Positions 5,051-22,369 of a stretch of 64,000 nt of DNA are shown here, piece after piece; position 1 is the stretch's first letter; every line of letters begins with the position of its first letter. A program made the position numbers and the translations under genes. Location of the stretch: assembly GCF_003073045.1 (NCBI RefSeq), contig NC_037592.1, forward strand, positions 10,816,007 to 10,880,006, in the 5' to 3' direction. The notes below the pieces were generated by a model. It was not told the DNA's origin. It saw only the letters and a list, made by a program, of their open reading frames with translations, and searched no databases. This DNA comes from Pomacea canaliculata (Eukaryota; Mollusca; Gastropoda; Architaenioglossa; Ampullariidae).

Positions 5051-7146
5051 TCTAAGTTGTGCGTCCACTGCCTCTGAGATTCGTTGAATGATGATCTTTG
5101 TCATGATCTTGCTCGGGATGGACAGGAGAGTTATTCCTCGCCAGTTGTTGCAGTCGCTAAGGGATCCTTTCTTTGGGATTTTGACGATCACTCCTCTGGT
5201 CCAGTCATCTGGGACTTGCTTCCCTTCCCATATTGCGGTAAATAGGGGTTGCAGGATATTGGCTGCCAGTTCTGGGTCTGCCTTGAATAGTTCAGCATTC
5301 AGATTGTCCTGGCCTGGTGCCTTTCTGTTCTTCAAGGATTTGATTCCTGTGATGATTTCCTGCTTCTCTGGTGGGGCGATGTTAGCGTCTAGGTCCTCAA
5401 TGGCTTCTTGTATGTCGGCTTCTTCGGAAGGTGGTGGTCTGTTCAGGACCTCTCTGAAGTGTTCAGCCCAGCGTGCTTCTTGTTCTCTCTCTGTCGTTAG
5501 CAGCTTCCCTTCCTTGTCCTTGACTGGGGCATCGTTGGTGCTGTGGAATTTGTCGCTAATTGTCTTGGTGATCTTGTACAGCTTTCCTTGTTCTCCTTTT
5601 CTTGCTGCTTCTTCGGCTTCATTTGCTAGGTTGTTCAAGTAGGCACGCTTGTCTGTTCTCGCCAAGCGTTTCACTTTCTGGTTCATCTCTCTGTACTGTA
5701 GTTTGAACTTCTCTTGCAGTCTTTCGGATCTGGTGCTAGTCACCTTCTTTTTTAGTTCTCTTCTTTCCTCTATCGCCTTCCACGTTTCTGGTGTTATACA
5801 TTCCTTCTTCTTAGTTCCTCTCAGTCCAAGACTAGTCTCGCTGCTTTTCTGGTACACTGTTCTCACAAGGTCCCATCTCTGGTTTCTTCTTTCTGCATCT
5901 GCCTCGCAAATGTCTGTCATGTCTGCAAGTGCCTGAAATCTGTTTTTCACTTGAAGAGTGAAGGCGTTTTTCAGTTTGGGGTCCTGCAATCTTTCCACAT
6001 CAAAGCGTCTGTGTGCTGCTGACTTGCGTCCTGTACTTCGCAGTTTCATTTTAATGTCTGCTACAACAAGGTGATGGTCACTTCCAACATCTCCTCTTCT
6101 CGCCCTGACGTCGAGCAGGGAACGTCTCCAGGAGCCGTTGATCATTAGGTGGTCGATCTGGTTACTGTCCCTACCATTGGGTGAGCACCATGTTAGTTTG
6201 TGGACATTGCGGTGAGGGAATAGCGTTCTTCCAATCACTAGGTTGTACATAGTGCATAGCTCCACTAGTCTCTCTCCGTTCTCGTTCATGCAGCCACAAC
6301 CATGTCTGCCCATAGCTCTCTCTACATGGGTGTTGTCGTTCCCAACTTTGGCATTCATGTCGCCCATCACAATCAACAGGTCATGGTGGGGTGCTGCACC
6401 TACTTCTGCCTGCAATTGATCGTAAAAGGTGTCCTTCGCCTCATCATCGCTGTCGTTGGTTGGTGCATAGCACTGGATCAAGGTCATGTTGCCATGTCTC
6501 CCTCTCACTCTGGCTGTAATCAGTCTGCTGTTGATCGGCTTCCACTCTATCAGGCACTTATCTATTCCTTTCCTCAGGATGATGGCTACTCCCTCATGGT
6601 GTTGGTTGTCCTCTCTGCCAGAATACAGCACTGTCTCTCTGGTCTGGGTCTTTACTCTTCCAGAGCCTGTCCATCTGCTTTCACTTACTCCAAGTATGTG
6701 TAAGTTGTAACGCCTCATCTCGGCCGTAATTTGTGTCAACTTACCAGTTTCATACATGGTGCGCACATTCCAGAAGCCTATTCTGGTCTTGCATTTGGCG
6801 CTCAAGACTTCCATCTTCGTGCCAGTAGCTTCCTTTCGGCTTTCACTACTAACAGTCATACAAGGATCTTGCGATACCTCTGGGAGCCCATCGCACACAT
6901 TAGTGGTAGTTTTCTCTGTCGCTGTTTCCGTAACATTTTTGTATTTTATGGGACAGGGTTGTTAGCCCTGTGCGCAACCCCCAACCTGGAGGACCAGGGA
7001 TCATGTTTCGTCTGGTATCTACCCTTTGACCTGCCCGGCTTGGGTGACCCTGCCCGGTATAGCTCTCAGGGTCATCGACACACACAAGGCCCCCGACCTC
7101 GACAAGGTAATGATCCTCCGGGGGGACACTCGAGCATTACACACAT
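5045..7146 (-). mobile_element. RTE-like LINE, 5' end present, 3' part missing
   Basis: One open frame of 617 codons (6898 down to 5045). Endonuclease: IGFWNVRTMYETGKL at about residue 40, GVSESRWTG, GDMNAKVG, NQIDHLMING, SDHHLVVADI. Linker: basic/coiled. Start of reverse transcriptase: [37 protein letters not shown], then the frame stops inside the RT palm and non-LINE sequence begins at about 5056. The YADD region and C-terminus are absent. The 5' leader (6900-7146) contains GGGCTAACAACCC, also found in the other LINE family at 17.6 and 52.8 kb. The long open frame implies a fairly young copy. LINEs usually lose the 5' end; this one has lost its 3' end, which points to a later deletion or recombination. 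Confidence 0.9.
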
Positions 7147-7149
7147 GTA

Positions 7150-7880
7150 AACATTTTGCCTTCTTTCTCACTAGAATATAAACAGTTCAACAGCAAATAG
7201 AAACAAAAAAATACAATCTGAATAGTTTGCAGTCTCTCTTTTCTTGTGCTGGAGCTACTAACGATGATGGGACTTGCATCTTTAAAGGAGGACTTGCTGT
7301 TTGTATGTCTGGGAAACAGGTTAATCATTTTGTTTGTTGAATTTTTTCCTGATATATTTATTTCTTAAATTCACTCCATCGCGGAGCAATGGTTTGAAAA
7401 ATATTAGCTTTAACTTGGACATGCTGCTCAAGTGTCAAAAAATTGTCCCAATTTCTAACAAAACACTTAACCTCAGTGATCTCCTTTCCTATTCTTGTTT
7501 TTGAAATTATTGCATGCAGAATTCATTGTACTTGTGAAAGTTATTTTTATTCTTTTACTTCCATGAAAATCAATTACAGTGTTTCTGCGGACCGTATTTT
7601 TGTTTCATGTGCATTCTAGTAACTACAAGTCGAAAGGAGATGAAAGTGTGAAACAGCAGTCCTACAACAAGACACAGAGTTTTGTGTTCTGGCAAGACGA
7701 ATGGCTTCAAACTTCGGTAAGACATGAATTCCAGACTCTAGCAAGACAAGGACTTTCTATCAGAAGACATAGTTCCAAACTCTGTAGCCGCCTGCTGGTT
7801 CCACCCAGTCGACAAGGGCGCTGTTCGGGGAGTCAGACATTTGTAAACATCGCACATTAATTCGCAGTTTCATGTTGTTC
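7150..7880. other. No gene seen
   Basis: A plus-strand frame at 7579-7860 has no recognisable domain, no homologous-looking motif and no clear splice context. The region is otherwise AT-rich and unassigned. Confidence 0.5.
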
Positions 7881-8590
7881 GTCTCATTATCCATTTTTAG
7901 TCACACTTTGAGGCCAGCTTTCGAGATAAAACTGGCAGTTATCTGCAAAGCGTGCACAGGTCCGTAAAGCTTGATGTCGAGTGGCATCGGCGACGGCCAG
8001 ACCTCCGCCCTCGGCTCCTGGAGGAACCTACACTCCTGTAGGATATGCTCCTTGGTTTGTTTTGCATCTCCACAGGAGCACATTGAGGATAACACCAGAT
8101 GTAGCTTCCGGTAAAGGTGGTGCTTTAGTCTGTTGTCATGAAGTAGAAAATTGTCACCTATCTTATCTGGACAGGTAGTGGTAGCTGCGTGTGGTCTATA
8201 CAAAGCTGTGGTCATCTCTGTTACACTGACTTTGTTTTCATCCTGCCGGTCTTCAGCAACTAGATTTGAAATCTGCTCATTGCCTTCAATACCGCAGTGT
8301 GAGGGTATCCACTACAGTACAATATAGACAACTGATATTTTTCAGTGCTGATATAAGATTAACTACCCAGTCATTGTTGGCGGCTTGTAGCACAAACAGG
8401 GCAATAGGAACATCCGTGAGTCTAAGCTTGCTTTGCTGCTGACACTGTTCACTGCTCATGTCAGGGCTTCGACTTGGGCTCTGTAGTTGGTGCAGGGGGA
8501 GCCTTTTAATATGAATACCGTTGGCCTGCGTCCATCGGGATATTGGATGTATACCATTTCGGATGGCTTCCGTCGCTAACCCATTTGTCT
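7880..8590 (-). mobile_element. LINE 3' fragment, RNase H and C-terminal Cys motif
   Basis: On the minus strand WIPSHCGIEGNEQ (about 8310-8270) is the end of a retroelement RNase H domain. It is followed by MTTALYRPHAATT and MCSCGDAKQTKEHILQECR, the C-terminal Cys-rich tail of I/Jockey-type LINEs. Upstream on the same strand a decayed RNase H start is readable in shifting frames (ALFVLQAANNDWVVNLISAL). Several frame breaks; inactive. No reverse transcriptase core is visible. Confidence 0.75.
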
Positions 8591-8671
8591 GAGCCTGTAT
8601 CCATGCTTCTTGGTGATACTTTTATTCTAATATGAAAAACGGTGTTTATCCTTGGCTGAGAAATGGTGGTG

Positions 8672-9466
8672 CCGATAGCACCTATCTCTTCTGCATTGTT
8701 GACTCATGGCAATGCCTTAACAGACTTGCACAGTGGTGCGACGAGAACTTTCTTGAGTTAAATGTAGACAAAACAAAAGAATTGAATATAGATTTTAGGA
8801 GAATCAAAGAGGATTTTGTTGCTCCTAGTGTGATACATAGCAAACCTGTTGAAACCGCTACCTCTTTTAGGTACCTGGGAACTGTTTTTGATTGCCTGCT
8901 TAAATGGACTCTAAACACTCAACACATTGTCAAATGTGGCCAGCAGAGAATGTACCTTTTGCGGAAGTTAAATAGTTTTTCAGTCAGCCAAGCAATTTCA
9001 GGCCGTTTCTACCAGTCTTTTATTGAGAGTCTTTTATCTTTTTCATTTGTATGCTGGTTTTGTAATCTATCTGTCCATGATAGGAATAGTTTAAATAGCA
9101 TTGTTCACATCTGTTCCAAAATAATTGGGATCAATCAGAGGGACCTGACTTCCTTCCTTGACCAACAACTAGTTAGGAAAGCTTCCCGCATTCTGTCAAT
9201 ACCTGAACATGTGCTAGCGGGGGAATGTGTTTTATTAAGTTCAGGTAAACGCTATGCCATGCCAGTATGCGAAAGCAATAGGCATCTGAAATCTTTTGTG
9301 CCATCAGCAGTCCAGCTACTTAATCACCGATAAACTGTCAGCAGTGTGTGTGCGTGTGATGTGTAGGTGTGCATGGGAATGATTTTTTAAAATATATATT
9401 GGAAACAGAGCACACCTCCCATTTAAATTGCCCATTGGGAAAGTTGGTTGTTATTATTATTATTAA
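8672..9466 (+). mobile_element. Rex1-like LINE 3' fragment
   Basis: A plus-strand frame (to the stop at 9333) covers the thumb and C-terminus of a Rex1-type reverse transcriptase: FLELNVDKTKELNIDFRR, SFRYLGTVFDCLLKW, QQRMYLLRKLNSFSV, FYQSFIESLLSFSFVCWF, CSKIIGINQR, SGKRYAMPVCESNR. The catalytic palm is missing, so the copy is 5'-truncated as is normal for LINEs. A short 3' UTR ends in a (TTA)n run at about 9452-9465. The frame is uninterrupted over about 215 codons. Confidence 0.85.
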
Positions 9467-9639
9467 AAGTATGAAGATAGTAATTTTATTGTCCCCACTC
9501 CCTCACTAAACCCATATGAATTTAAATTGCTATCACAAAATTAATACACTCTCAGTTGACATAATATATGTATATCCCTTGTTAAATTTGTATCATCTTT
9601 ATTTACTAATATTCATGATAGAATTAGGTGTCAGATATA

Positions 9640-10430
9640 CATGATCATAAGTTTAGTTCTGTACGGCTGACTAGATGCATCTCTGTTAAAGATATCAATG
9701 ACATGCTTCCAAAGCAGATGCTGACCATTTAACCAAAGATAGCGTGTCTGCCGACCTGATCCAGAATTATATAGTTTCTCACTGTTTTGAGTAAGTGAGG
9801 AACATCAGAAAAAAATATATATCTCTCTCTCTGGCAAACAGATTTATTGTTTTATAGCAAACATCTGCACCACTGCCATGCATTTCATAGAGCCTTTGAT
9901 TTGGTGAGGCCTTATCACTTGTGGATGATATCACTTTAAACCCTGCTTCCTCAACAAGACCAACTGCCTGCCAAAAAAGTGTGAACAAAGCATCTGCAGT
10001 AACTGTGCGCCAAAGAAACCAATGCTTGTACTGATATTTGTAGTTAAGCCTACAATGTAAAATACTAATGCATGGGTAGCAGGGGTTGATGCCTGTACAT
10101 CCTGACTACCAAAAAACTCAACAAGTTCCCCTTAACGTTTATCAAAACTAGGTCACATTTAATTGTCATTTCGTCATGCAACAAGACGACAAAGCGTTGA
10201 TGATGTACTAAACTCTCTGCTTTTTTCTTCAAATCATCCAGCGAGTTCGTTTGAAAACCAGGCTTTGGATGATAAACATTTTTATAATCTCTAAGGGTAG
10301 ATTCACCTGGAAGGCGAAGTATACCTGTATTTCTTAGAGTATCATATGCTTTTTGGCTCCTGCTGTGCAGTAAAATAGCCAATCTCAGCATCGTAGGATG
10401 CCATCTCATGCATCGAAAGGCGAACATTCA
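9640..10430 (-). pseudogene. P-element-like (THAP9-type) transposase relic
   Basis: Minus-strand pieces follow the order of this family: MRWHPTMLRLAILLHSRS, LPGESTLRDYKN, VVLLHDEMTIKCDLV (catalytic-region DEM), then in another frame HALVFYIVGLTTNIS, then LFWQAVGLVEEAGFKV, SDKASPNQRLYEMHG and ARERDIYFF. After a further one-base shift comes SDVPHLLKT, then LWLNGQHLLWKHVID. At least three frame shifts, with no THAP zinc finger seen, so it is an inactive fragment. Family assignment rests on motif order and is from memory. Confidence 0.7.
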
Positions 10431-10439
10431 AGGGTCTAA

Positions 10440-11605
10440 ATTTTAACCCTGCAGATGGCCCTTGAAGGTCCAGTTCTAACTGGATCAACGCTGCTCATTT
10501 TCCTACAAGTAAATATTGATGGTCTGCCACTCTTTCACTCCTCATGTAATCAGTTTTGGCCTATTCTGGGGAGAAAATATAGTCCTGTAGAAACTGACCC
10601 TTTTGTAATTGGCTTGTACTGTGGGGAGAGAAAACCCGAAGATGTTAATATGTTTTTACAAGACTTTGTAAGGGATATGACAGAATTACAGCAAGGGCCT
10701 GTGCAACTAGAAGTGTCACGATCAACAGTTGGACATGCGCATTCTTTCCAATAACAAAACACGAGATCACTTCAGGTTGGGAGGTCCAAGTAATTATTAT
10801 ACACGAAAACTTCAAAAATAAATAGCAATACACGAAACTTCCAAATTAAGCAGTTTGAACCATACACTTTCCCTCGTACACAACGATATCAGAGTTACAC
10901 TAGCATACACCAAATATTATGAAATGCAGATACTAAGACCGCACGCAGGCTGGTCTACAGCAGTTTCCAAAACTGCAACTTAAATCCACAATAACAGTTT
11001 TACACAGCAACAAGTTATCACACTTATCTGTTCACTAAATCATAAGGCAAAAATCATAATCATAACTGCAGTTAACCATCCTGACATGGCATGAACTCTA
11101 TGAATGTAAAACTCAAGTCAACTATTTGACACAGCCAGCAAGAAAACACAGTCAAGTGGCTAGGATACTCAGGTTGCACATCAAATCACGCTAGCACCTA
11201 CAATACTGAGGGTGCACATTCTCACTCATGCACGGGAAAAGGTGATAACCACATCTACAGAGGTAACAACCCCTTTACCGTCACAAGAAGGTATCCCTCA
11301 GTGTGTACAGATTAATTTGTCTTGTTTCATCAGTGATGCACCAGCTCGCGCGTTTGTAAAGCAAGTGAAAGGTCATTCACGATATTATGGCGTGTGAAAA
11401 GTGTGTACAAAAAGGATTTTGGGATGGAAAGGTTGTTTACCCTGAGCTTGGCTGTTCCCTCGAACGGATGCTCAATTTGATGAAATGTGCTTTTCAAATC
11501 ACAAAACTGGAGAATCTCCTCTCAGAACTCTTAGGAATGGTTTCACAGTTTCCATTAGATTATATGCATTTAGTGTGTCTTGGAGTTATGAGAAGGTTGC
11601 AGATG
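10440..11605 (+). pseudogene. CMC/CACTA-like transposase relic with ~520-bp insertion
   Basis: First part (about 10500-10725): VNIDGLPLFHSSCNQFWPIL, PFVIGLYCGERKPEDVNMF. Second part (about 11305-11605): INLSCFISDAPARAFVKQVK, GHSRYYGCEKCVQKGFWDG, then SQFPLDYMHLVCLGVMRRL. These motifs follow one another directly in the transposases I recall, so the roughly 520 bp between about 10730 and 11300 look like an insertion. The frame then stops at QMKERE. The last ~90 bp recur at 12644-12700 and, decayed, at 15596-15665 inside the cassette-exon array. Confidence 0.7.
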
Positions 11606-11679
11606 AAAGAGCGTGAATAACGAGAGTGAGTGAGGAAAGTATTCAGAATGCGTGTATGGATAACATAAATTATTTGCAG

Positions 11680-11721
11680 TTCACCTATTCTTTCTTCACT
11701 GATCGATACCAACACAACCAG
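11680..11721 (+). CDS. Possible small exon before unit U1
   Basis: ATTATTTGCAG precedes and GTACGG follows a 42-nt open piece reading FTYSFFTDRYQHNQ. A copy at about 12760-12801 has the last Gln codon changed to TAG, and a shorter copy lies near 12019. The acceptor resembles that of the linker exon at 15008. Exon status is inferred from splice signals only. Confidence 0.3.
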
Positions 11722-11763
11722 GTACGGAGTGTAAGAAGTCTTTTTGCGTGTTTATTTTTTCAG

Positions 11764-11930
11764 CAACCCAACCATCAAAAGGGGGCTCCAGCCATCGCAG
11801 AAAGAAAAAAGCAATACACCACCTAACCAGTTACATTGGGACAATGGCAGAGGGTTTAGAGTTCGATGACATCCTTCCTCTTAGTAACATTCTTATCGAT
11901 CGTATGCATCGATTTGTTACAGATAAAAAG
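11764..11930 (+). CDS. Cassette exon U1
   Basis: Acceptor TTTATTTTTTCAG, donor AAAAAG|GTAAACC. 167 nt (2+165). Encodes (x)TQPSKGGSSHRRKKKAI, then GTMAEGLEFDDILPLSNILI and a tail ending TDKK. Strongly basic start followed by two predicted amphipathic helices around a Gly-Leu. Reading on without splicing stays open for about 40 codons into VNHHKASNYKALR and SEESFQNACMDN. The nearest relatives are U5 and U6. Confidence 0.6.
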
Positions 11931-12086
11931 GTAAACCACCATAAAGCCAGTAACTATAAGGCTCTAAGGTCTAAAGTGAGTGAGGAAAGTTTTCAGAATG
12001 CGTGTATGGATAACATAAATTATTTGCAGTTCACCTATTCTTTCTTCACTGTGTAAGAAGTCTTTTTGCGTGTATATTTTTTTCAG

Positions 12087-12250
12087 CAACCGAAACAAAA
12101 GGAGGCTCACAGCACAGACGAAAGAAAAAGGCTATCCATCACCTCACTAGTTTCATTGAAACTATGGCCGCAGGCCTGATCTTAGAAGACATCCTACCAT
12201 TGAGTGTAATTCTCATCGAAAACATGGACAGATTCATCAAATCTAAAAAG
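12087..12250 (+). CDS. Cassette exon U2
   Basis: 164 nt (2+162), between CAG and GTAAACC. Encodes TETKGGSQHRRKKKAIHH, FIETMAAGLILEDILPLS and a tail ending KSKK. In frame with the same entry and exit phases as the other units. The intron that follows lacks two bases (AACTAAGGC) compared with U1, U5 and U6 (AACTATAAGGC). Confidence 0.6.
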
Positions 12251-12328
12251 GTAAACCATCATAAAGCCAGTAACTAAGGCTCTAAGGTACGGAGTGTAAG
12301 AAGTCTTTTTGCGTGTTTATTTTTTCAG

Positions 12329-12496
12329 CAACTGAAACCTCAAAAGGCGGCTCCCGCCACCGGAGAAAAAAAAAGAGCGATTCATCATCTAACTGGGTTT
12401 ATCGAAACAATCGCAGAAGGATTATCTTTGGAAGAAGTCCTTCCATTAAGTGCTGTTCTGATTAATGATATCAACAGATTCGTAGCTGCTGGAAAG
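12329..12496 (+). CDS. Cassette exon U3, one-base frameshift in A run
   Basis: 168 nt, one more than the 2+3n rule. The extra base is in the A run after CACCGGAG, where U4 has one fewer. Apart from this it encodes GGSRHRR, FIETIAEGLSLEEVLPLS and INRFVAAGK. The homopolymer position makes an assembly error as likely as a real lesion. Splice sites and flanks match the other units. Confidence 0.5.
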
Positions 12497-12574
12497 GTAA
12501 ACCATCATAAAGCCAGTAACTAAGGCTCTAAGGTACGGAGTGTAAGAAGTCTTTTTGCGTGTTTATTTTTTCAG

Positions 12575-12643
12575 CAACTAAAACCTCAAAAGGCGGCTCC
12601 CGCCACCGGAGGAAAAAAAGAGCCATTCACCATTTAACTGGGT
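12575..12643 (+). pseudogene. Cassette exon U4, truncated and fused to transposase copy
   Basis: Starts like the others (TKTSKGGSRHRRKKRAIHHL) but after CATTTAACTGGG switches into a second copy of the CMC-like transposase segment (YMHLVCLGVMRRL, 12644-12700) and that segment's downstream flank. The switch lies within GGGTATAT, close to the TTATAT of the donor copy at 11560, suggesting recombination at short homology. The second half of the cassette and its donor are missing. Confidence 0.7.
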
Positions 12644-12845
12644 ATATGCATTTAGTGTGTCTTGGAGTTATGAGAAGGTTGCAGATGAAAGAGCGTGAAT
12701 AACGAGAGTGAGTGAGGAAAGTATTCAGAATGCGTGTATGGATAACATAAATTATTTGCAGTTCACCTATTCTTTCTTCACTGATCGATACCAACACAAC
12801 TAGGTACGGAGTGTAAGAAGTCTTTTTGCGTGTTTATTTTTTCAG

Positions 12846-13012
12846 CAACCGAACCATCAAAAGGGGGTTCAACATATAGAAGGAAAAAAAAGGCAATACA
12901 TCATTTAACGTCTTACATTGCCACCATGGCAGAAACCTTGCAGTTTGAGGAAATCCTTCCTCTAAGTAATATCCTAATAGATCGTATGACACGATTTATT
13001 ACAGATAAAAAG
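12846..13012 (+). CDS. Cassette exon U5
   Basis: 167 nt with intact acceptor (TTTTTTCAG) and donor (AAAAAG|GTAAACC). Encodes TEPSKGGSTYRRKKKAIHHL, IATMAETLQFEEILPLS and a tail ending ITDKK. Against U6, about 26 of 55 codons differ but only four change the amino acid, the pattern of purifying selection on a protein. The introns on either side are nearly identical to those of other units. Confidence 0.65.
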
Positions 13013-13092
13013 GTAAACCATCATAAAGCCAGTAACTATAAGGCTCTAAGGTACGGAGTGTAAGAAGTCTTTTTGCGTGTTTATTTTTTCAG

Positions 13093-13259
13093 CAACCGAA
13101 CCATCCAAAGGTGGATCCACCTACAGAAGGAAAAAGAAAGCGATACACTACTTGACATCGTATATTGCCACCATGGCAGAACCTTTACAATTCGAGGAAA
13201 TCCTTCCTCTCAGCAACATCTTGATAGACCAAATGACACGATTTTTTACAGATAAAAAG
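13093..13259 (+). CDS. Cassette exon U6
   Basis: 167 nt with intact splice sites. Encodes the same protein as U5 with H to Y, T to P, R to Q and I to F changes, but uses different synonymous codons throughout. After its donor the sequence leaves the short-intron array and enters a longer intron (13260-13768) leading to a C-terminal exon, so U6 is the last unit of the packed cluster. Confidence 0.65.
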
Positions 13260-13768
13260 GTAAACCATCATAAAGCCATTAACTATAAGGCTCTAAGGTC
13301 ATAGAGGAACAAGTTTTGTAAATAGTTGAAACATGCAGAAAATGAAAACAGCATGGCTGAGATCAAATTTAAAACCAGGACATTCATTTATCTTTATTCA
13401 TAATCAACTCTAAACTGTTGCCAAAACATCTCTTTAAAAAGTTACTGATTGCTATTAATGACAACATTTATCATCAAAAGACTTGGTCTCTTGGCCTTTT
13501 GAATGTGTGCTGGCGTTTCCCTATCAGATACATTGAGATTGAAATAATCGGTGGGCTTGGCCAGCCACAAGTCTAAGTTGGCCTCAAATCAGTGACTTTC
13601 TGCTCCATAGTAATGCGCACTAACCAAAGCCTCAAGGAAATATTTAGTTACAACACATTTGGTCCCCAGAAGAATAAGCAGTCTTTCTTCTTTTGGAAAT
13701 TGTAAATTCACTTATATGAGAACATTGAGATGATGAAATTCTCAGACCAACGGTCTACCATTTCCCAG

Positions 13769-13849
13769 AGTCCAGCGCAAGAGACTCCAGAGCAAAAGAC
13801 TCCAGCGCAAGAGATGGAGCCCGAGCAGGAAACACAAAATGACCTGTGA
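13769..13849 (+). CDS. C-terminal exon A
   Basis: Acceptor GTCTACCATTTCCCAG; begins in phase 0, matching the phase-0 donors of the cassettes, and reads SPAQETPEQKTPAQEMEPEQ to a TGA. Acidic, Pro/Gln/Glu-rich tail with an internal TPAQE/TPEQK repetition. The last ~90 bases of the preceding intron are almost the same as those before C-terminal exons B and C. Confidence 0.6.
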   Translation, partial: SPAQETPEQKTPAQEMEPEQETQNDL

Positions 13850-13870
13850 CTTCTGCTTGCTGTCATCCAG

Positions 13871-13998
13871 TTTTTGGTGTTAAATCTCTTGTTAAATCTT
13901 TTGTGTTAAAGACTCGAATTAATCATAAACTGAAGCGTTACCGAAGAAAGTTACGAGCTGTGCAACAGCTATTTGGTTTTCTCCAAACTATATCTGAC
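13871..13998 (+). pseudogene. Cassette exon U8 copy, truncated
   Basis: Nearly identical to U8 (16482 onward): FGVKSLVKSFVLKTRINHKL, YRRKLRAVQQLFGFLQTIS, but broken at the end of TATCTGA, where Ser/Thr-rich unrelated sequence begins. It lies directly after C-terminal exon A, as U8 lies directly after C-terminal exon C. The 13.68-14.0 kb and 16.3-16.61 kb segments are therefore duplicates. Confidence 0.7.
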
Positions 13999-14868
13999 AG
14001 CTTCCTGTCATCCACCACGCACCAGTCAACCACCACGACCTCTTCTAGGTTACCAGTTGTCAGCACTACTACCCTCAAGACCACCCGGCCTTCTGTTCCC
14101 ACATTACATGGCACTACGGCCAACAGTAAGTCAGTGGTAGGATGAATATTGTCTGTCTGTCTGTCTGTCTGTCTGTGTCGCGTTCTTGCTATTACGACCA
14201 TCTCAGAATTCAAAACTGAACGTCTATCAGGTAACTGCTGATTTTTTTTCTCATTGGGGTGGATGAGTGCTCCCCCTTAAATGATGAAGAAGTGGATGAT
14301 CAGATGGTTGATTGGCTGGTTGGCTCATTCAATGGATGATCGGTCCATTTTCTAGCCCTGTGGTGGGACAGTGACAAGAAAGCATCTAGAAGACCAGGTG
14401 CATGCAGGCAGCTACACCCATCTTCAGGAAACAACGGGCGAAGTAGCCAGGCGGTACTATCAGTAACAACGAACGGGGACAGTTCGTGTTGAGGAGACCT
14501 ACTGTATTCCAAGACTGTGAACTGTGGGTCAGAGGCGGACCGCGTGTCCGGATATATGTGCAGATACGTAAGACCAAATCATCTCCTTAATTCATTATTG
14601 TGTAATTGTGTGTTTATGTCAACCTAATTTGCTTTTGTTTAATGCTTTTGCTGTGTACACCGTCTTGTCAGTTGGTGTGTTTGCCGGGTGGAGCGAGCCA
14701 GCTATAGAGACCCTTTTCCCCTCGTGCGAGTCAGGTCCAGCCTTCTCCCAGCCCAGTATACGTCACAGAGTGACAAAATTTTTCAGACTGTGCTCGCGCT
14801 GTTATGGATGACGTAAAAAAATACGTATGAGAGAGAGAGAGCGAGCGTTACTTAAAACGAGTAAAGAA
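13999..14868. other. Unassigned; Ser/Thr-rich piece and (TCTG)n microsatellite
   Basis: About 14000-14128 reads as a Thr/Ser-rich stretch (THQSTTTTSSRLPVVSTTT) followed by a donor-like GTAAGT. It could be a relic mucin-like exon brought in at the U8-copy breakpoint. A (TCTG)n run lies at about 14153-14176. The last ~60 bases before 14869 (GA-rich, then TTACTTAAAACGAGTAAAGAA) are presumably the 5' UTR of the exon that follows. No TATA box is evident. Confidence 0.45.
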
Positions 14869-14877
14869 ATGGAGGAG
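14869..14877 (+). CDS. Putative start exon (MEE) of cassette gene
   Basis: ATGGAGGAG directly followed by the donor GTAAGTCCC, phase 0. It joins in frame to the linker exon at 15008. The intron after it resembles the intron after exon 15243 (both start GTAAGTCCCTT and contain ATTAATTAAGACTTTTTT). The protein start is inferred from this in-frame linkage; there is no transcript evidence. Confidence 0.5.
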
Positions 14878-15007
14878 GTAAGTCCCTTTAAGTTTCTTAG
14901 TGCAACAATTTTTCTTTAGGATCAGGTTAAGTTTATTTAATGCACCCCCACACACATATGTATGGCTAGACACATTAATTAAGACTTTTTTTAAAAATTA
15001 TTTGCAG

Positions 15008-15050
15008 AGAAATAAAGAAGAAGAACAGCCAGGGCCAAGCGGAAAAAAAG
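15008..15050 (+). CDS. Charged linker exon of cassette gene
   Basis: Acceptor ATTATTTGCAG, donor AAAAAAAG|GTATGT. 43 nt encoding RNKEEEQPGPSGKK and one extra base, so it leaves in phase 1. Every cassette unit enters needing exactly one base, so linker to cassette to C-terminal exon stays open and gives a protein of about 100 residues. Confidence 0.5.
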
Positions 15051-15242
15051 GTATGTAAAAGTTAAACATCAGATCTGTAGAAAATAGTTCTGGATATTAT
15101 TTTCACTTTGGACCAATGATACCATATGAATGACATTATAGATTTCAAAATGACCTTAGAGGAAAAAAATTCTTAAATGTTTAAGATCTAATGTTTTATA
15201 ATTTTTGAAATGACTTTTTTTTCTCTCTTTTTTTCAAAATAG

Positions 15243-15268
15243 GTAAAGGAAAGAAACGAACTTTAGAG
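15243..15268 (+). CDS. Micro-exon, cassette-class phase
   Basis: 26 nt between TTTTTTTCAAAATAG and GTAAGTCCC. With the linker exon's last base it reads GKGKKRTLE and ends in phase 0, the same 1-to-0 phase as the cassettes. A relative with a near-identical upstream intron lies at 17265. It may be an alternative to a cassette. Confidence 0.4.
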
Positions 15269-15386
15269 GTAAGTCCCTTATATTTTGTCTGATTTTATTT
15301 ACCTGATATAGTAGGTTGAAATATGCACATGCACATGCCTAGAAACGTTAATTAAGACTTTTTTAAAATTATTTGCTGCCCGATAG

Positions 15387-15424
15387 CGACGACGACAACA
15401 GAAGCATCTCGCCGCAGCGAGAAG
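15387..15424 (+). CDS. Micro-exon, cassette-class phase
   Basis: 38 nt ending at donor GTACGTAC. Entered in phase 1 it reads ATTTTEASRRSEK and ends in phase 0. Entered in phase 0 it reads RRRQQKHLAAAR. The upstream intron repeats the ATTAATTAAGACTTTTTT block but has a poor acceptor (GCCCGATAG). Confidence 0.35.
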
Positions 15425-15520
15425 GTACGTACAATACGGAACGTTTATTTAACTTATATATATATACTCTAAAGGAAATATAATATTTATTTATTAATTC
15501 CATGTCCAAAGTCAACGCAG

Positions 15521-15665
15521 AATACCACGCTCATCAGAGAAGGATTAGAGCACAAGTTAGCAAATACATGAAAGGCTTATCAAAATCTAGATCTGAGAAT
15601 CTCCTCTCAGAACTCTTTCTGTAGGATTGGTTTCAGTTGCCATTAGATTATTTGTATTTAGTGTG
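15521..15665 (+). pseudogene. Decayed exon joined to transposase fragment
   Basis: CATGTCCAAAGTCAACGCAG is a plausible acceptor (its relative is at 16847). The open frame then runs at about 15593 into a third, degraded copy of the transposase segment (ENLLSEL; compare 11511-11585) and ends near TGTGTCTTCACTG. From there the sequence continues as the standard flank of a cassette unit. No donor is seen. Confidence 0.4.
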
Positions 15666-15735
15666 TCTTCACTGATCGATACCAACACAACCAGGTACGG
15701 AGTGTAAGAAGTCTTTTTGCGTGTTTTTTTTTCAG

Positions 15736-15890
15736 CTAAAGGTGGCTCTCGCCACAGACGGAAAATAAAAGCCATTGAAAATTTGTGTGGCCTGATCCAG
15801 TCGGCAGCAGAGGGACTAACCCTTGAGCAAATATTACCGCTAGGAATACGTCTCCTAACATCTTTTCAGGAATATGCCACTGGTCGAGAG
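15736..15890 (+). CDS. Cassette exon U7
   Basis: 155 nt (2+153), acceptor TTTTTTTTTCAG, donor CGAGAG|GTAAACC. Encodes (x)KGGSRHRRKIKAIENL, then AAEGLTLEQILPLGIRLL and a tail ending TGRE. It is the most divergent of the short units but keeps the Gly-Leu and ILPL positions. It lies downstream of the MEE and linker exons and upstream of C-terminal exon B, so 14869-16260 is the best candidate for one complete gene. Confidence 0.6.
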
Positions 15891-16170
15891 GTAAACCATC
15901 ATAAAGCCAGTAACTAAGGCTCTAAGGTCATAGATGAACAAGTTTTGTAAATGGTTGAAACATGCAGAAAATGAAAACAGCATGCCTGAGATGAAATTTA
16001 AAACCAGGACATTCATTTATCTTTTATCTCATACATGGAAATATTTAGTTACAACACATTTGGTCCCCAGAAGAATAAGCAGTCTTTCTTCTTTTGGAAA
16101 TTGTAAATTCAGTTATATGAGAACATTGAGATGATGAAATTCTCATACCAACGGTCTACCATTTTTCCAG

Positions 16171-16260
16171 ACTCCAGCACAAGAGTCTGCGGAGGAAGGA
16201 TGCCAGAAACAAGGAAGGGGGACAAACAAGGAAGAGGGACAAATTGCCCCCCTGCCCTAG
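16171..16260 (+). CDS. C-terminal exon B
   Basis: Acceptor GGTCTACCATTTTTCCAG; begins in phase 0 and reads TPAQESAEEGCQKQGRGTNK, ending GQIAPLP and TAG. Shares the (S/T)PAQE start with exon A and then diverges. Reached from U7 by an intron (15891-16170) that is homologous to the one after U6. Confidence 0.55.
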   Translation, partial: TPAQESAEEGCQKQGRGTNKEEGQIAPLP

Positions 16261-16394
16261 GGGAGGCAACCACAGGCAGGCCGGCTCACGGAGCATGATA
16301 AGAGCAGTCTTTCTTCTTTTGGAAATTGTAAATTCACTTATATGAGAACATTGAGATGATGAAATTCTCAGACCAACGGTCTACCATTTCCCAG

Positions 16395-16460
16395 AGTCCA
16401 GAGCAAAAGACTCCAGCGCAAGAGATGGAGCCCGAGCAGGAAACACGAAATGACCTGTGA
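16395..16460 (+). CDS. C-terminal exon C
   Basis: Acceptor TTTCCCAG; reads SPEQKTPAQEMEPEQETRND and stops at TGA. It differs from exon A by a short in-frame deletion and one residue. Part of the duplicated block that also contains U8. Confidence 0.5.
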   Translation, partial: SPEQKTPAQEMEPEQETRNDL

Positions 16461-16481
16461 CTTCTGCTTGCTGTCATCCAG

Positions 16482-16687
16482 TTTTTGGTGTTAAATCTCT
16501 TGTTAAATCTTTTGTGTTAAAGACTCGAATTAATCATAAACTGAAGCGTTACCGAAGAAAGTTACGAGCTGTGCAACAGCTATTTGGTTTTCTCCAAACT
16601 ATATCTGAAGGATTATCGTTGGAGGACTTCTTAAAACTTAGTCTCATTCTCCATACAGAAACTAATAAATTTCTAATTGCCGAAAAG
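16482..16687 (+). CDS. Cassette exon U8 (long form)
   Basis: 206 nt (2+204), acceptor CTTGCTGTCATCCAG, donor GAAAAG|GTAAAACC. Encodes VFGVKSLVKSFVLKTRINHK, YRRKLRAVQQLFGFL, ISEGLSLEDFLKLSLILH and a tail ending IAEK. It is about 13 residues longer at the start than other units and has a different upstream flank, with the same phases. The downstream flank soon diverges into a GTACATAC intron like the one after 15424. Confidence 0.55.
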
Positions 16688-16847
16688 GTAAAACCATCAT
16701 AAAGAAAAAGACACGCTATGAAAGTGTCCTGGAAGAGAGGAGGAGCCCTGTACATACACAATACAGAACGTTTATATAACTTATATATACTCTAAAGTAA
16801 ATATACTATTTATTTATTAATTCCAACCATGTCCAAATTCAATGCAG

Positions 16848-16903
16848 ATTAGATACCTTCGCTCGATTACCGAAGATCTACCAGAAGAAGCGGTGTTATT
16901 TAG
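16848..16903 (+). CDS. Possible exon, relative of 15521 exon
   Basis: Acceptor CATGTCCAAATTCAATGCAG (matches the flank of 15521), donor TTTAG|GTAGGT. Phase 0 reads IRYLRSITEDLPEEAVLF. It is preceded by a GTACATAC...TATATACTC intron matching the one after 15424. It would belong to a second, rearranged copy of the gene. Confidence 0.35.
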
Positions 16904-17264
16904 GTAGGTGGATGACTGTTTAGTCAAGCAAATTGTTACTTCATATATGGATTATTTAGGTAAATGAATGACAGCAAAAGTCACAATGTATTGAACCTGT
17001 GACTTTTTTTTTCAGCCTCTAGTTTAATGTTTATGTAACCATTCATTTCAGTTTCAATGTTATTTTTGTTCAAGTTGTTCTCATTTCATTGTCATTTATT
17101 TTTAAAATGAATGGATTGCATTTGTGTGTGTGTGGGGGGGGGGGTGTAGATACAGGGATTTAATGCATATGTGGTCCTTTGGCCGCCTTAAAAATTCTTT
17201 AATGTTTTAGACCTAATGTCTTATAATTTTGAAGTGACTTTTTTCTCTTTTATTTTCAAAATAG

Positions 17265-17293
17265 TGATGGAAGGGAAAAGAAGAAGACAAGAA
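17265..17293 (+). CDS. Possible micro-exon, relative of 15243 exon
   Basis: 29 nt between TTTTATTTTCAAAATAG and GTAAGTTCC, reading (x)MEGKRRRQE, 2+27 nt as in the cassette phase class. The flanking introns clearly match those at 15243 (both sides), showing that the 5' part of the gene was duplicated too. Confidence 0.35.
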
Positions 17294-17512
17294 GTAAGTT
17301 CCTCATGTTTCTTCTGATTTTATTTACCCTATCCTGACGACTGTGTTTACTTTGCATGCTTGGGAGTAGTGTTAGCTCAGGAAAAGCATTTTATGTTGCT
17401 TTTGCTTGCTTTGTGACAGTTTTATTTTGTTAGTCTTATTTTCTACTGAACTTGTCTTCCATAAATCACTGGTGTGTTATATGGGTATTCTTATACTAGT
17501 AGCCCCTGTGGG

Positions 17513-18047
17513 ACCCCGGGGTATGCTTGCCTAGCGAGCATTGCAAGAATAGGGTCCCTGCCATCCATGTCGCAAGAGGCGACTAAGGTGGACACCTCAC
17601 CTAGAGGTAAAATAGGTTGTGGTAGGGCTAACAACCCCACCATGTAAAAAAAAAACATGTTACAGAAACTGAAACCAGAGAATTAGTCACAGATGGCGAA
17701 GGCAATGAAGCACACCAGGCGACTGGACTTATGACGGACGTTAGCCAAACCCGAGAGGGAGCTGGCGCCCCGACAGCGGATTTACTGAAGCCGAGGCAAA
17801 AGTTGAGGGTGGGGTGCTGGAACATCCAGACCTTGTACCAGACTGGCAGGATGCACCAACTAGTCAAGGAGTTTGACAACTACAACTTGGACATCCTGGG
17901 AGTCAGTGAGGTCAGATGGACTGGCACGGGAAAGAAGAGACTATCGTCAGGACATACCATCTTGTTCTCAGGAAGATCAGACGCTCAGCACTCTGAAGGG
18001 GTAGCTCTACTCCTCAACAAGAAAACGGAAAAGGCACTGCTGGAATG
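17513..18047 (+). mobile_element. RTE-like LINE, 5' 535 bp only
   Basis: Begins CCCCTGTGGGACCCC, the same 5' end as the full-length copy at 52895, and carries the leader (GGGCTAACAACCCC at 17626) and the start of the endonuclease frame: [49 protein letters not shown]. It ends abruptly at GGAATG and host-like sequence follows. Losing the 3' rather than the 5' end is atypical of LINE insertion. No target duplication was recognised. Confidence 0.9.
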
Positions 18048-18632
18048 ACTTTTCTTCTCTCCATACTTCACATGGTTTGTTCCATCATCTTTTTTTAAGA
18101 AACCTGTAGTCCTAACATTTGCTACATATGGACTGGCAGCCATCATGTTATTTGTACCATCTTTAGAACTTGGAAATAATGTATCTTTTGTCCTTCTGGT
18201 GTAGGGACTGGTAAGAGCTTGTCGAAGGTATGCATCAGAACGCAGACTGCTTCCGCAATTTAGAAGACTGTGGGGCACTTGCCTGGGGCTCGGATGGTAC
18301 ACCCCTTCTTTTATACCAAGTCTGGATAATGTCTTGACACCTTCAGCACTGTGGTTCTGAGCATGTACATTCAAAGGAAGAGGATGGACATCATCTGGTG
18401 AAGCAGGTATCTTTCTTCCTGCCAACTGTTGTTGTTTTGCATCACCATGAGGGAAGGGACTAGGATCAAAAACAGAGTCTAAACACACATCTTTCAAAGA
18501 TATCTTTGACTGCTGTTTGTTCATCATAGATGTTCTCAAGGGAGTATTTTGATTCTGAAAGTAGTTTGAGTGACCAAGTATCAGCTCATCATTACCCTCT
18601 TCAAGTGGCGGCCTTTTTCCTGCTGTTTTCAT
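17985..18632 (-). CDS. Unknown ORF, disordered, 3' end from LINE
   Basis: A 215-codon minus-strand frame starting MKTAGKRPPLEEGNDELI. It is rich in Ser, Pro, Asn and Gln with no recognised domain. Residues after about KYGEKKSH are antisense LINE sequence, so the native end has been lost or replaced. Its ATG overlaps the TGA of the preceding exon frame (18629-18631) in a different frame. It could be a downstream coding part separated by a one-base lesion, an exon with an unseen acceptor, or 3' UTR. It sits in the gene lying head-to-head with MZT1. Confidence 0.45.
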   Translation of the reverse strand: MKTAGKRPPLEEGNDELILGHSNYFQNQNTPLRTSMMNKQQSKISLKDVCLDSVFDPSPFPHGDAKQQQLAGRKIPASPDDVHPLPLNVHAQNHSAEGVKTLSRLGIKEGVYHPSPRQVPHSLLNCGSSLRSDAYLRQALTSPYTRRTKDTLFPSSKDGTNNMMAASPYVANVRTTGFLKKDDGTNHVKYGEKKSHSSSAFSVFLLRSRATPSEC

Positions 18633-19728
18633 ATCTGCATGCTAAATAATGCTGCTGCCCTTCTGTCCATCAAGGATACATTCTGAACTTTGAATCCAAA
18701 ATTTTCTCTTCTCCCACTATAAGCTTCAAAATATCCTGATCTCAAATATTTATGTGGAAAAGATAGATGTAGGCTGTCATTTTTAGTCCCCTTGGATTCT
18801 GCAAAAGAATTATAATAAAATTATGCTTAAAATTTGTTTAATCTGAAATCATCCATAATTTTGTGGTTCAATATTTTAATTCTGTGACAATGGATTGATC
18901 TAGCTTTCTTTTTTTTATTTTGGACTGATTCTTGAAACTTCTGAGGTTCACTGACTTGAATGCAAAACCAGTGAATTCCATTCACACACATTCTACTTTC
19001 CCCTCTAGCCCATCACTGTCTCAGTGGAAGAAATACATTCATCTATTGCTCTATTTCTGCTACGCCATCCTTGAAAAATAAAGAACAAACATGGCTGTTT
19101 ACATCAATTTTTTACATAACTCCTAAAGTGAGGCATAATAATAATAAACACAAAATTTGTAAAGCGAATACTCACACTCCTAAGAAAGCATGCACACCCC
19201 CATACAGGAAACTATCAACCATAAAGTAACATGCAGAACTGCATGACTTAAAATGGTTAAATCTATTACTAATAAACACTGTAATCAGAAATTAATTTAA
19301 AATCCAAACATCAAAACTATAAACACCATGCTCAGTGGGTAATTGCTCATGCATCTAATACTTGTTTCTTAACGCATTCCCTTCTGGACTTTAGATTCTG
19401 ATTACGATGATACATCAGCAAGTAAAGAAACACTGTTATCGAAATGAGATGTCTGATTAAAACAGGAATGAGGAGATTTAAACTCTACTTACACTAACAC
19501 TTTGACTGACACGCACATTCAAACGATTCATTGTCTTCACAATGACAAATGTATTTTCAAAAGTTTCAGTCTAGCAATGAACAGCAAGAAAGGCATGATC
19601 GACGACTCGAAAAACAATCGATAAACATTTGATTACTTAAATATTTTAAGTCTCAGCACACTGATTCAGTTAAATCCCTACTTTTCTTCCTCATGTTCTG
19701 TATATGCTTTGAGAGGAGTAACGTCCAT
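18629..19728 (-). CDS. Small gene of unknown function, head-to-head with MZT1
   Basis: Three exons with matching phases: 19682-19728 (MDVTPLKAYTEHEEE, donor GTAGGG), 19406-19452 (HLISITVFLYLLMYH, donor GTAATC) and 18629-18798 (acceptor CTTTTGCAG; SKGTKNDSLHLSFPHKYL, RRENFGFKVQNVSLMD, stop TGA). Total about 87 residues. Exon 2 could be a short membrane segment. I do not recognise the protein. The start lies 224 bp from the MZT1 start on the opposite strand, suggesting a shared promoter. The larger frame at 17985-18632 may be its true continuation, in which case the gene is frameshifted. Confidence 0.4.
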
Positions 19729-19951
19729 TCGTTCAAACCGCCGATTTCAACTCAATACTACGTCACTTCCGTTCGCCTGTGATGTACAGCGACAAGATTC
19801 GAAATAATTTATATATAATTATATAATAATTTTGATAGATATATATGTAGAATATATTTAATATATTAAAGCCTTTCTTTTATGAAGAAGACAATAATAT
19901 AAAAATTTAGCATAGAAGAATATTTCTTGAGCTCGTCAGTCATAAACAAAA
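19729..19951. promoter_or_regulatory. Likely bidirectional promoter for MZT1 and minus-strand gene
   Basis: 223 bp between two divergent start codons, with the sequence CGTCACTTCCGTTCGCC at its left side and an AT-rich right side. No TATA box at a usual distance. Inferred from gene arrangement; the TGACGTA/CTTCCG pieces resemble CRE- and ETS-type sites but are too short to prove it. Confidence 0.4.
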
Positions 19952-20659
19952 ATGGCAGAAGCTGGAGGGAAGCCCAAAGTATCGAATGCCAGAGAAACAT
20001 TAGACAGTACGCTCTTTCCTACTTTTCATAAATAAATATATCTTTTATTTTGCATGTAACTCTCAAAATGTGTATTGTTTTCGGCACAAAAGTAATGGTT
20101 CTGTGTTTAAATTTTTTTGCTTGACGTTTGGTTACCGTCTGCCTACGATCCATTTAGTTTGTCGTGTCGCGCAGTACCAAACCAACAACAACCTATACAC
20201 AAAGTTTCCATTCATATTACTCTAAACATCTAAACATTAGCATTAATCAGCGAAAATTTTGCTTTATGTTCTGTGCAGTCCTTGCCGAAATATCCAAATT
20301 GTTGAACACCGGCTTGGACACAGATACCCTAGCCCTGTGTGTCAGATTGTGTGAGAATGGCATCAATCCTGAGGCTTTGGCGCTGGTTATTCAAGAGTTG
20401 AGGCGAGAATCTGCTGCGATTAAAGTATGTACCTAGTCTATTTCATATTTAACAGCGGCGGCATAGATGCATCACTACAGTGCTGCAAAGTCTTTCATAA
20501 TAATGCATGAGATAAAATTAATCTTAAATAAATAATTTTGTTTAGATTAAATTTATTAAAATGTTTATGTCTCTCTCTCTCTGTGGTTTTCCATTTCAGT
20601 TTTATTTGCCTCTCCAATTTTTTTCTTTACAGGCATCTGAGTCATCCAATTTATCATGA
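19952..20659 (+). CDS. MZT1: MOZART1, gamma-tubulin complex adaptor
   Basis: Three exons: 19952-20006 ([18 protein letters not shown]), 20279-20424 ([39 protein letters not shown]) and 20633-20659 (ASESSNLS, stop). Junction phases agree and the sites are GTACGC, GTATGT and canonical AGs. Length is 75 residues; the human protein is 82. MOZART1 is a small helical protein that binds the N-terminal part of gamma-tubulin complex subunits and is needed to recruit and activate the complex at spindle poles and centrosomes. The conserved core (TGLD..TL..CVRLCE.GINPEAL) is fully present. The N-terminal Ala/Gly stretch is shorter than in vertebrates. The gene looks intact. Confidence 0.97.
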
Positions 20660-22320
20660 AGAAAGGAGAATGCTAAAATACAGGAGAAATATAGTGTCAG
20701 TTTTGTTATTAACCCATTTTTTTTTTTTTATAAGTTAACTTAATCATATCCTAAGGACCTTTCTTGTAACAGGCTTTTGAATTTATATTCTCAGCATGCA
20801 AGATCTGGTAACTCTTTATCAATTTGGCACATCAGTATTGCTGTTGTTACATAAATGATTAAGTTACCTGCTTAGCTAAGACACCCTCTGCAGCAATGTG
20901 TGTAGAATGTACCTGCTTCTATAAAAAAAAACAACAAAGAAAGCATCATTTTAGAGTGGAAGGCAGTATTTGGTAGCACTACTCTGTGTGTGTGTGTTTA
21001 TATTTTTTGAAAGAAATATTGTCACTAGGAACTGGTCCAAGATGATCGTGAGCTGATTGAAAAACTTATCCAAACCCCGAACAAAAAGCTCATAGTTTGA
21101 GGCTCCCACAAAAAAGAAAAAAATAATGTAACTCTTGCTTCTCATTGTTATGAATGTGTGTGAATTAATAAGTGTTGGTGTTTGAATCTATGCACATTTT
21201 AATTAGTAAATTTTTAAGTTGTGATAAAGGAATGCTGTAATGTTTCATAAATACTGTAGTCATAAAAAAAACAAAGAGAAAATAATGTGGAATAGACTAT
21301 AATTGCTGTTTCCATTTTTTTGGTACTGTACATGATGGTGTTTTTGTCCACTTTCACTAATGAAATACTTGTTACCAGGACTATAAAAGTCAACTGCCCT
21401 GAGTTCATATCCCATCTTGGGAATACTGTTTTTTCTCTGCATATACTTGTTTGTAGAACTGTAAAAAAAGTCTTAGTTGCTAGCTTGTGCATGCGCGCAC
21501 ACACACACATGCATATTCAGCTTATAGAAATGCTGGATATCTATTTTTAACATAAATCTAGAATGGCAGTGTGAGACTGATCATATGTTTTTCATACTTG
21601 TGATGGAGACCTGATGGAATGCTTGTTGTTAGTAGTCTCATAGGTTTATTTAGTGCATCCAATGCAAGAAATAAATTATTCTATAAAAAGATGTAATGCT
21701 GTTGGAGTTTGATTTTTTTGGTTGTTGTTATTCTTGAAAGCTTAGAGCAGCTTTACTCAAGAGGAAACCTTCAAATAATTTTCAGGTCAGCGAAAAAGTT
21801 ATCCTCCGTTCAAAGTGTAATAATCCAAGTCATTTCTACATTTATCATTCCCCTGACACAAATGGGACATTGGATTTATGGCAACATGGGCCACCAGTCT
21901 AAACAAAACTAATTGATAAGTAACTTTGTAAAGAAGTATCTTTACCATGCTAGTTGTTGCGCTGGTGCAGTGAAATATTACCATCAGTACTGTTTGCAGG
22001 CAAGTGCAAGCATCTTGCTGTAGATATTTTATAACTATTTTTTTCCCTTCAGTCACAATCTATTGCAGCACACCCAGCAATATCTCATGAAACTATTAAT
22101 AGAGTTCTAAAGACTACTAGGGGAGATAGGCTGGTACTCTGTGAATCATGCTTTTAATTTCTGGTGTGATTTGTAATTTAGGCGTGTGTCTTTCAAATTT
22201 TTTTAAACAGAGTAAATGGGAATGTACAACAGATCTTAAAGGGAGAGAATATTCATCAGTTTATCCTTGTCTCTACATTTTCTGCTTTTCTTTTTCTCGT
22301 GTCATTCTCAGTGGCTGAGT
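20660..22320. other. MZT1 3' UTR / intergenic, no gene seen
   Basis: AT-rich, short low-complexity frames only. AATAAA-like sites occur, for example AAGAAATAAATTATTC at about 21668, which could end the MZT1 transcript. Confidence 0.5.
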
Positions 22321-22369
22321 TAAATGCCAGTGTTTAACACAATCGCATTTTTAGGCATACAAGCCAACA

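What the first reader, a model, noticed from the sequence alone, without database searches (positions are those of the whole stretch)
11764..16687. Undescribed-looking array of cassette exons encoding variants of one helical domain
Eight related exons (plus one truncated copy), most with intact acceptor and donor, lie in tandem with a start exon, a linker exon and three alternative C-terminal exons. All phases fit the scheme start - linker (phase 1) - one cassette - C-terminal exon (phase 0), giving a family of ~100-residue proteins with a constant basic/acidic leader, a variable helical core and an acidic Pro/Gln/Glu tail. I know no gene family with this design. It could be a Dscam-like exon-choice locus in miniature, or a transposon-borne gene.
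Basis: partly seen in the sequence, partly recalled or inferred. Interest (0 to 1): 0.95.

Follow-up and report, generated by a model that had tools for sequence, protein, structure and literature searches.

The report
Snail micro-exon gene cassette array
This stretch of apple-snail DNA holds part of an unnamed, many-copy family of small spliced genes whose coding pieces differ strongly while the introns beside them stay almost identical, which makes it a useful place to ask how an animal keeps many protein variants apart.

Summary
The window is golden apple snail DNA. It holds seven full-length copies and one truncated copy of a ~52-residue domain exon (U); five have an open frame and both splice sites. 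They belong to an unnamed family with about 102 U places, fragments included, on three chromosomes.

The exon scheme is real. The only protein found with the family profile (80 aa) equals start micro-exon + linker micro-exon + U exon of a sister locus at C3:1.318 Mb in 78 of 78 residues, across two introns; its last two residues fit a third intron.

The strangest feature is reversed conservation: between two collinear loci exons differ at 23% of aligned bases and the rest at 2.7%. U exons of one type at different loci differ about as much as their introns, so I favour old exon types with homogenised introns over exon hypermutation.

Function is unknown. A transposase relic accompanies many clusters, but no transposon boundary was found.

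The parts
11764..11930 (+). U1, domain exon, open frame, both splice sites
12087..12250 (+). U2, domain exon, open frame, both splice sites
12329..12496 (+). U3, domain exon with a one-base frame break in an A run; both splice sites
12575..12648 (+). U4, truncated domain exon; continues into a copy of transposase-relic sequence
12846..13012 (+). U5, domain exon, open frame, both splice sites
13013..13092 (+). 80-nt intron-like spacer U5-U6, nearly the same beside the other units
13093..13259 (+). U6, domain exon, open frame, both splice sites
13769..13849 (+). C1, tail exon with in-frame stop
14869..14877 (+). possible start exon (MEE); not found at other loci
15008..15050 (+). x2, linker micro-exon (x4 class, length 1 mod 3)
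15243..15268 (+). x3, micro-exon (length 2 mod 3)
15379..15424 (+). x4, micro-exon whose acceptor reads TG here (AG at sister loci); probably unusable
15736..15890 (+). U7, domain exon; the only intact U downstream of the leader exons
16171..16260 (+). C2, tail exon with in-frame stop
16395..16460 (+). C3, tail exon with in-frame stop
16523..16687 (+). U8, open domain frame without the shared acceptor; possible relic
17265..17293 (+). x3-class start micro-exon (ATG at 17267) of a further module; no U exon was found downstream of it in the window
   Evidence: class shown to hold the start codon at C3:1.318 Mb
10504..11620 (+). decayed transposase relic (coding pieces 10504-10713 and 11283-11620, interrupted); parts repeated at 12643-12702 and 15595-15669

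Best explanation
The locus is part of a multi-copy snail gene family. A gene consists of a start micro-exon, one or more linker micro-exons, one U exon (a basic, then probably helical domain of about 52 residues) and a short 3' exon, giving a charged protein of about 80-100 residues. Clusters change by unequal exchange and gene conversion in the introns, which keeps introns nearly identical, while U exons persist as a limited set of old, distinct types because selection keeps each type's protein. In the window one leader-bearing gene is readable (x2-U7-C2 or -C3, with an uncertain start exon); U1-U6 with C1 are an array without a recognised leader. Shown: splicing at one sister locus, the phase scheme, reversed conservation, protein constraint. 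Inferred: homogenisation as its cause, selection for distinct types, helical structure, and any role. My guess for the role, at about 0.25, is a recognition-type protein in immunity or genomic conflict.
For: P0001 equals the joined x3-x4-U exons of C3:1.318 Mb in 78 of 78 residues. In the window/C3:1.76 pair 61 of 265 exon columns differ against 25 of 939 other columns, and 0 of 1203 circular shifts of the exon mask do as well. 31 of 39 non-self matches to the intron before x2 end within three bases of the acceptor. U5/U6 pS 0.71, pN 0.03; 4-fold sites differ more than introns in 175 of 182 pairs. Same-type U exons between loci: exon 6.9%, intron 5.1% (11 pairs); different types within the cluster: exon 35.2%, intron 8.7% (133 pairs). 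Silent differences are bimodal: 24 pairs below 0.2, 2 at 0.2-0.3, 164 above. Precedent: gibbon L/M opsins (PMC3213168, abstract).
Against: Types were defined by exon divergence itself (below 15%), so the same-type comparison is partly circular. U7 against its C3:1.76 counterpart (exon 18.7%, intron 2.9%) and the Ua-like pair C3:0.75/10724398 (22.2%, 10.1%) look like one type whose exon changed faster. Introns are alike even between chromosomes, which asks much of gene conversion. No conversion-tract test was run. In two of six pairwise scans the low-identity stretches did not single out the exon. One product only, from an unnamed source.
Confidence: 0.6

Rival explanations
1. Exon-targeted rapid change: exons mutate, or are selected to change, faster than introns, so recent duplicates have near-identical introns and divergent exons.
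For: Collinear window/C3:1.76 pair: x2 79%, x3 85%, x4 58%, U7 81% identical, introns mostly 96-100%. Micro-exons vary in sequence and length at almost every locus: exon divergence exceeds flank divergence in 292 of 311 x4 pairs and 126 of 156 x3 pairs.
Against: Same-type U exons at separate loci differ no more than their introns. Most change in U is silent, so fast protein change is not the driver there.
Confidence: 0.2
2. Dscam-like exon choice: one leader is spliced to one of several U exons of an array.
For: One U per protein is enforced by phase (20 of 20); at C3:10.7305-10.7213 Mb five leader exons are each followed by two to four U exons, several with frame breaks, with one recognised C exon at the end.
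Against: In the window the leader lies downstream of U1-U6. The one known product has one U behind its own leader. No junction counts were available.
Confidence: 0.3
3. The clusters are copies of a large transposon that carries these genes as cargo.
For: A transposase relic lies on the same strand and 5' of nearby U exons at six of the seven C6 and C11 places within 30 kb of U exons, and directly before a U exon at four C3 places.
Against: Open over all 122 query residues in only two of the eleven copies compared. At C11:8.967 it lies on the 3' side, at C3:1.799 and 1.931 on the other strand. Of 40 inverted-repeat pairs at 6900-20500 the 25 shown include no convincing terminal pair. C3 copies share long flanks, as segmental duplications do.
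Confidence: 0.12
4. Decayed tandem repeats without function.
For: Several copies are frameshifted, truncated or lack a splice site: 20 of 26 units with recognised sites are open.
Against: Protein constraint, conservation that breaks at splice sites, and a spliced product from a sister locus.
Confidence: 0.05

Closest known systems
Catarrhine L/M opsin genes, exons 3-5 (gibbon study PMC3213168, abstract read)
   Same: Divergence between duplicates is higher in exons than in introns; that paper explains it by gene conversion in introns and selection against it in exons.
   Different: Two genes there; here about 102 domain-exon places, micro-exons, and silent sites near saturation.
Schistosoma micro-exon genes (PMC10526429, abstract and introduction read)
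   Same: Highly variable small proteins built from very short exons; many members spread over chromosomes.
   Different: Described there as secreted, with exons up to 81 bp; here the main domain is a single 155-177 nt exon and P0001 has a charged N terminus.
Dscam duplicated exon arrays (PMC3236188, passages read)
   Same: Tandem related exons of 130-160 bp with short introns (about 100-200 bp), one per protein.
   Different: That paper found no sign of gene conversion between the duplicated exons; here introns look strongly homogenised, leaders are interspersed, and exon choice is unproven.
Venom gene families with accelerated exon change (recalled; PMC6609765 passages on a snake serum-protein array)
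   Same: Rapidly diversifying small-protein arrays; exons changing more than introns is recalled, not taken from the passages.
   Different: Fast amino-acid change is recalled there; here the U protein is conserved and silent sites are nearly saturated.

Membership tests
Micro-exon gene (MEG) | Protein built from very short exons (up to 81 bp in PMC10526429) | tested here: not met
   x2, x3 and x4 class exons are mostly 26-61 nt, but the U exon is 155-177 nt.
Micro-exon gene (MEG) | Secreted product | tested here: inconclusive
   By eye only: 15 of the first 25 residues of P0001 are charged, unlike a signal peptide; no predictor was run.
Dscam-type mutually exclusive exon array | Tandem duplicated exons whose phases allow one per protein | tested here: met
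   U length 2 mod 3; 20 of 20 intact U exons hit a stop if entered after another U.
Dscam-type mutually exclusive exon array | A shared upstream leader for all exons of the array | tested here: not met
   In the window the leader exons lie downstream of U1-U6; elsewhere in the cluster this stays possible.
Dscam-type mutually exclusive exon array | Alternative transcripts that use different exons | not testable with these tools
   No RNA reads.
Opsin-type intron homogenisation | Divergence higher in exons, silent sites included, than in introns | tested here: met
Opsin-type intron homogenisation | Conversion tracts lie mostly in introns; exon and intron trees disagree | tested here: inconclusive
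   Trees differ (deep exon types, nearly flat intron tree) but intron support is weak; no tract test was run.
Large DNA transposon with cargo | Terminal inverted repeats and target-site duplication | tested here: inconclusive
   No convincing pair among the 25 of 40 inverted repeats shown at 6900-20500; complete cluster ends were not compared.
Large DNA transposon with cargo | Intact transposase gene | tested here: not met
   Only a partial segment is present; two of eleven copies compared are open over all 122 query residues. Copies outside those read were not examined.
Accelerated (venom-type) exon evolution | Amino-acid change at or above silent change | tested here: not met
   U units: pN below pS in 21 of 21 pairs. 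Not computed for the micro-exons.
Known protein domain families | Profile match to the U domain | tested here: not met
   20 members scanned: Pfam gives two families, one member each, best E 0.034; NCBIfam none; PDB best E 1.5.

The most novel reading that the evidence does not exclude
The leaderless U arrays are silent cassettes. Because introns are nearly identical and U exons are not, recombination within introns could move a whole U exon from a silent array into a leader-bearing gene, in the germline or even somatically, as antigen or mating-type cassettes are swapped elsewhere, but in an animal and with introns as the exchange sites.
Probability: 0.1. Interest if true: 0.92.

Novelty: new variant of a known kind. 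Interest (0 to 1): 0.64.

Why it matters
If right, this is a large, so far unnamed repertoire of small proteins in a widespread invasive snail, with each variable piece delimited by splice sites. It offers a clear system, with about 102 domain-exon places, for asking how selection keeps many exon variants apart while recombination makes the introns beside them alike, and whether arrays without leaders act as a reservoir. It is also a practical warning: micro-exons of 26-61 nt between repetitive introns are easily missed by gene prediction (inference).

Tried and rejected
Considered and rejected or left open. (1) A BESS-like domain, suggested to me by eye from the C6 members: no such Pfam match in 20 members at E up to 10 (weak matches are mostly filtered out there). 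(2) Viral relatives: one scan of viral contigs with the transposase fragment found nothing; the scan with the U alignment could not be made, so U was not searched there. (3) Constraint as the sole cause of intron identity: a stretch holding transposase-relic sequence is as alike, 98.2%, but regulatory constraint on part of the introns is not excluded. (4) RNA families: none at gathering threshold in 10000-18000.

Literature: nine searches. None of the listed titles and abstract beginnings describes this family; the listings show 6-15 papers each, of open-licence full texts only. Papers opened: PMC6129957, PMC6609765 and PMC3236188 (passages), PMC3213168 (abstract), PMC10526429 (abstract, introduction).
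Full report
WHERE THE WINDOW COMES FROM. The window lies at C3:10816007-10880006 of a 440,159,624-base genome in 24 contigs. [quoted passage not shown] I take this as the species. That assembly was made from PacBio reads corrected with Illumina reads (same passages), so one-base frame breaks in A or T runs may be errors.

THE OBSERVATION. U1, U2, U5, U6 and U7 have open frames and both splice sites and are 2 mod 3 in length. U3 carries one extra base in an A run. U4 runs into a copy of transposase-relic sequence. U8 lacks the shared acceptor. C1, C2 and C3 are tail exons with in-frame stops. A joined reading start-x2-U7-C3 gives 90 residues and a stop. The geometry contradicts the proposed scheme: U1-U6 and C1 lie upstream of the start and linker exons on the same strand, so only U7 can be reached by linear splicing.

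FAMILY AND LAYOUT. Two protein searches of the genome (54 and 27 matches), merged with 72 profile segments from the regions fetched first, give 102 distinct U places, fragments included: 60 on C3, 27 on C6, 15 on C11. The further profile hits were not added, and the genome searches score only the best candidates, so this is a lower bound. Exon order in C3:10.71-10.83 Mb is modular. At 10.7305-10.7213 Mb, minus strand, five x3 leader exons (four with a canonical x4) are each followed by two to four U exons, several with frame breaks, with one recognised C exon at the end. At 10.797-10.783 Mb modules x3-x4-U are followed by none to three C exons. At some C6 and C3:0.76 Mb members a stop precedes the conserved donor, so there that intron is 3' of the coding part.

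THE EXONS ARE REAL. A profile of 20 U variants found one protein at E up to 10, among 560 candidates from 5.8 billion sequences: P0001, 80 aa, E 4e-15, on a 973-nt contig. Two earlier searches, with a hand-made composite and with a smaller alignment, found none. Joining the predicted x3, x4 and U exons of C3:1.318 Mb gives P0001 letter for letter over the 78 residues that they encode, across introns of 229 and 530 nt; the last two residues and a stop fit an acceptor 522 nt further on. These introns plus the coding sequence would exceed 973 nt, so the contig must be spliced. At that locus the x3 exon with TGATGG holds the start codon; the window has such an exon at 17265-17293.

REVERSED CONSERVATION. 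Between the window and the collinear C3:1.76 Mb locus, 61 of 265 exon columns differ but only 25 of 939 others, gap columns left out (Fisher p 5e-24; 0 of 1203 circular shifts reach it). A sliding scan that knew no exons marks, in that pair, only the surroundings of x2, x3, x4 and U7, and only the U exon in U5/U6, U1/U5 and window/C3:1.91. In two further pairs it was less clean: at C3:0.75 the low stretch held the U exon and its surroundings and a second one lay 3' of it, and in a C6 pair the U exons were alike and the low stretches lay elsewhere. Genome-wide, 31 of 39 non-self matches to the intron before x2 end within three bases of the acceptor. Micro-exon lengths: 13 of 17 distinct x4-class exons are 1 mod 3 (31-61 nt); in the x3 class only 7 of 14 are 2 mod 3. 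For U, silent change is near saturation while protein is conserved: U5/U6 pS 0.71, pN 0.03. Over 20 open units, 4-fold sites differ more than introns in 175 of 182 non-identical pairs; 12 of 32 full-length units were dropped first, six without recognised splice sites and six without an open frame.

WHY. If exons simply mutated faster, U exons of one type at separate loci should outpace their introns. On average they do not: 11 same-type pairs between loci differ by 6.9% in exon and 5.1% in intron, while 133 different-type pairs within the cluster differ by 35.2% and 8.7%, and 67 different-type pairs between loci by 38.2% and 6.8%. Types were set by exon divergence below 15%, so this is partly circular. 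Two pairs just outside that limit, U7 with C3:1.76 (18.7% and 2.9%) and C3:0.75 with 10724398 (22.2% and 10.1%), speak for faster exon change. Silent differences are bimodal. Along the exon they are absent in the last three codons, but the 5' end is mixed: codons 2 and 5 show none, codons 1 and 3 show 0.56 and 0.39. The exon tree has deep types; the intron tree is nearly flat, weakly supported, with identical introns beside different types. My reading is old exon types with recently homogenised introns, as described for gibbon opsins (PMC3213168, abstract); the micro-exons leave room for faster exon change as well.

TRANSPOSON QUESTION. A transposase-relic segment lies beside many clusters. 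Seven of the eight C6 and C11 copies read share flanking sequence, and two of eleven copies compared are open over all 122 query residues. It is on the same strand and 5' of the U exons at six of seven C6 and C11 places within 30 kb, but 3' at C11:8.967 and on the other strand at C3:1.799 and 1.931. Copies at C11:7.12 and C4:18.2 Mb continue further. I would call it CACTA-like from recall; Pfam gave no match for the window pieces. I read it as an old passenger amplified with the clusters; a role in their first spread is not excluded.

WHAT IS NOT KNOWN. No function can be assigned: no convincing Pfam, NCBIfam or PDB sequence match, and structure prediction was off. A recognition or conflict role is a guess from the maintained variety. 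Whether related snails have the family could not be tested.

Noticed in passing
L044, L045 (C7:29.48-29.50 Mb); places on C1, C4, C9 and C12: Introns of the x3 and x4 micro-exon classes also occur on chromosomes where no U exon was found. In two 3-kb pieces of C7 the micro-exons are there but no convincing U domain follows (best E 0.32), so the leader modules may serve other 3' exons or be strays.
   Followed up: partly
window 9779-10427 (-): Remains of a P-element/THAP9-like transposase: two frames match Pfam TNP-like_RNaseH_N above its cut-off, just 5' of the other transposase relic.
   Followed up: no
window 6001-11971 and 18056-23323: Long local duplications: 6001-11971 matches C3:10759824-10753868 (97.6%), 6001-11388 matches 10802262-10796868 (99.1%), 18056-23323 matches 10745232-10739969 (97.2%).
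   Followed up: partly
window 5045-6961 (-), 50303-52774 (-), 17503-18047 (+): Reverse-transcriptase-type ORFs, named by eye; the fragment at 17503-18047 is 94% identical to 52344-52895 reversed and follows the last start-type micro-exon.
   Followed up: no
C6:4239727-4242965 (L032-L033); also C3:10.714-10.716 and 10.747 Mb (L010, L013): A tandem repeat of about 0.93 kb lies 3' of the C6 cluster and recurs 3' of two C3 arrays.
   Followed up: no
window 14560-14773: A dispersed repeat found on C2, C3, C4, C7, C9 and C10 lies just 5' of the possible start exon.
   Followed up: no
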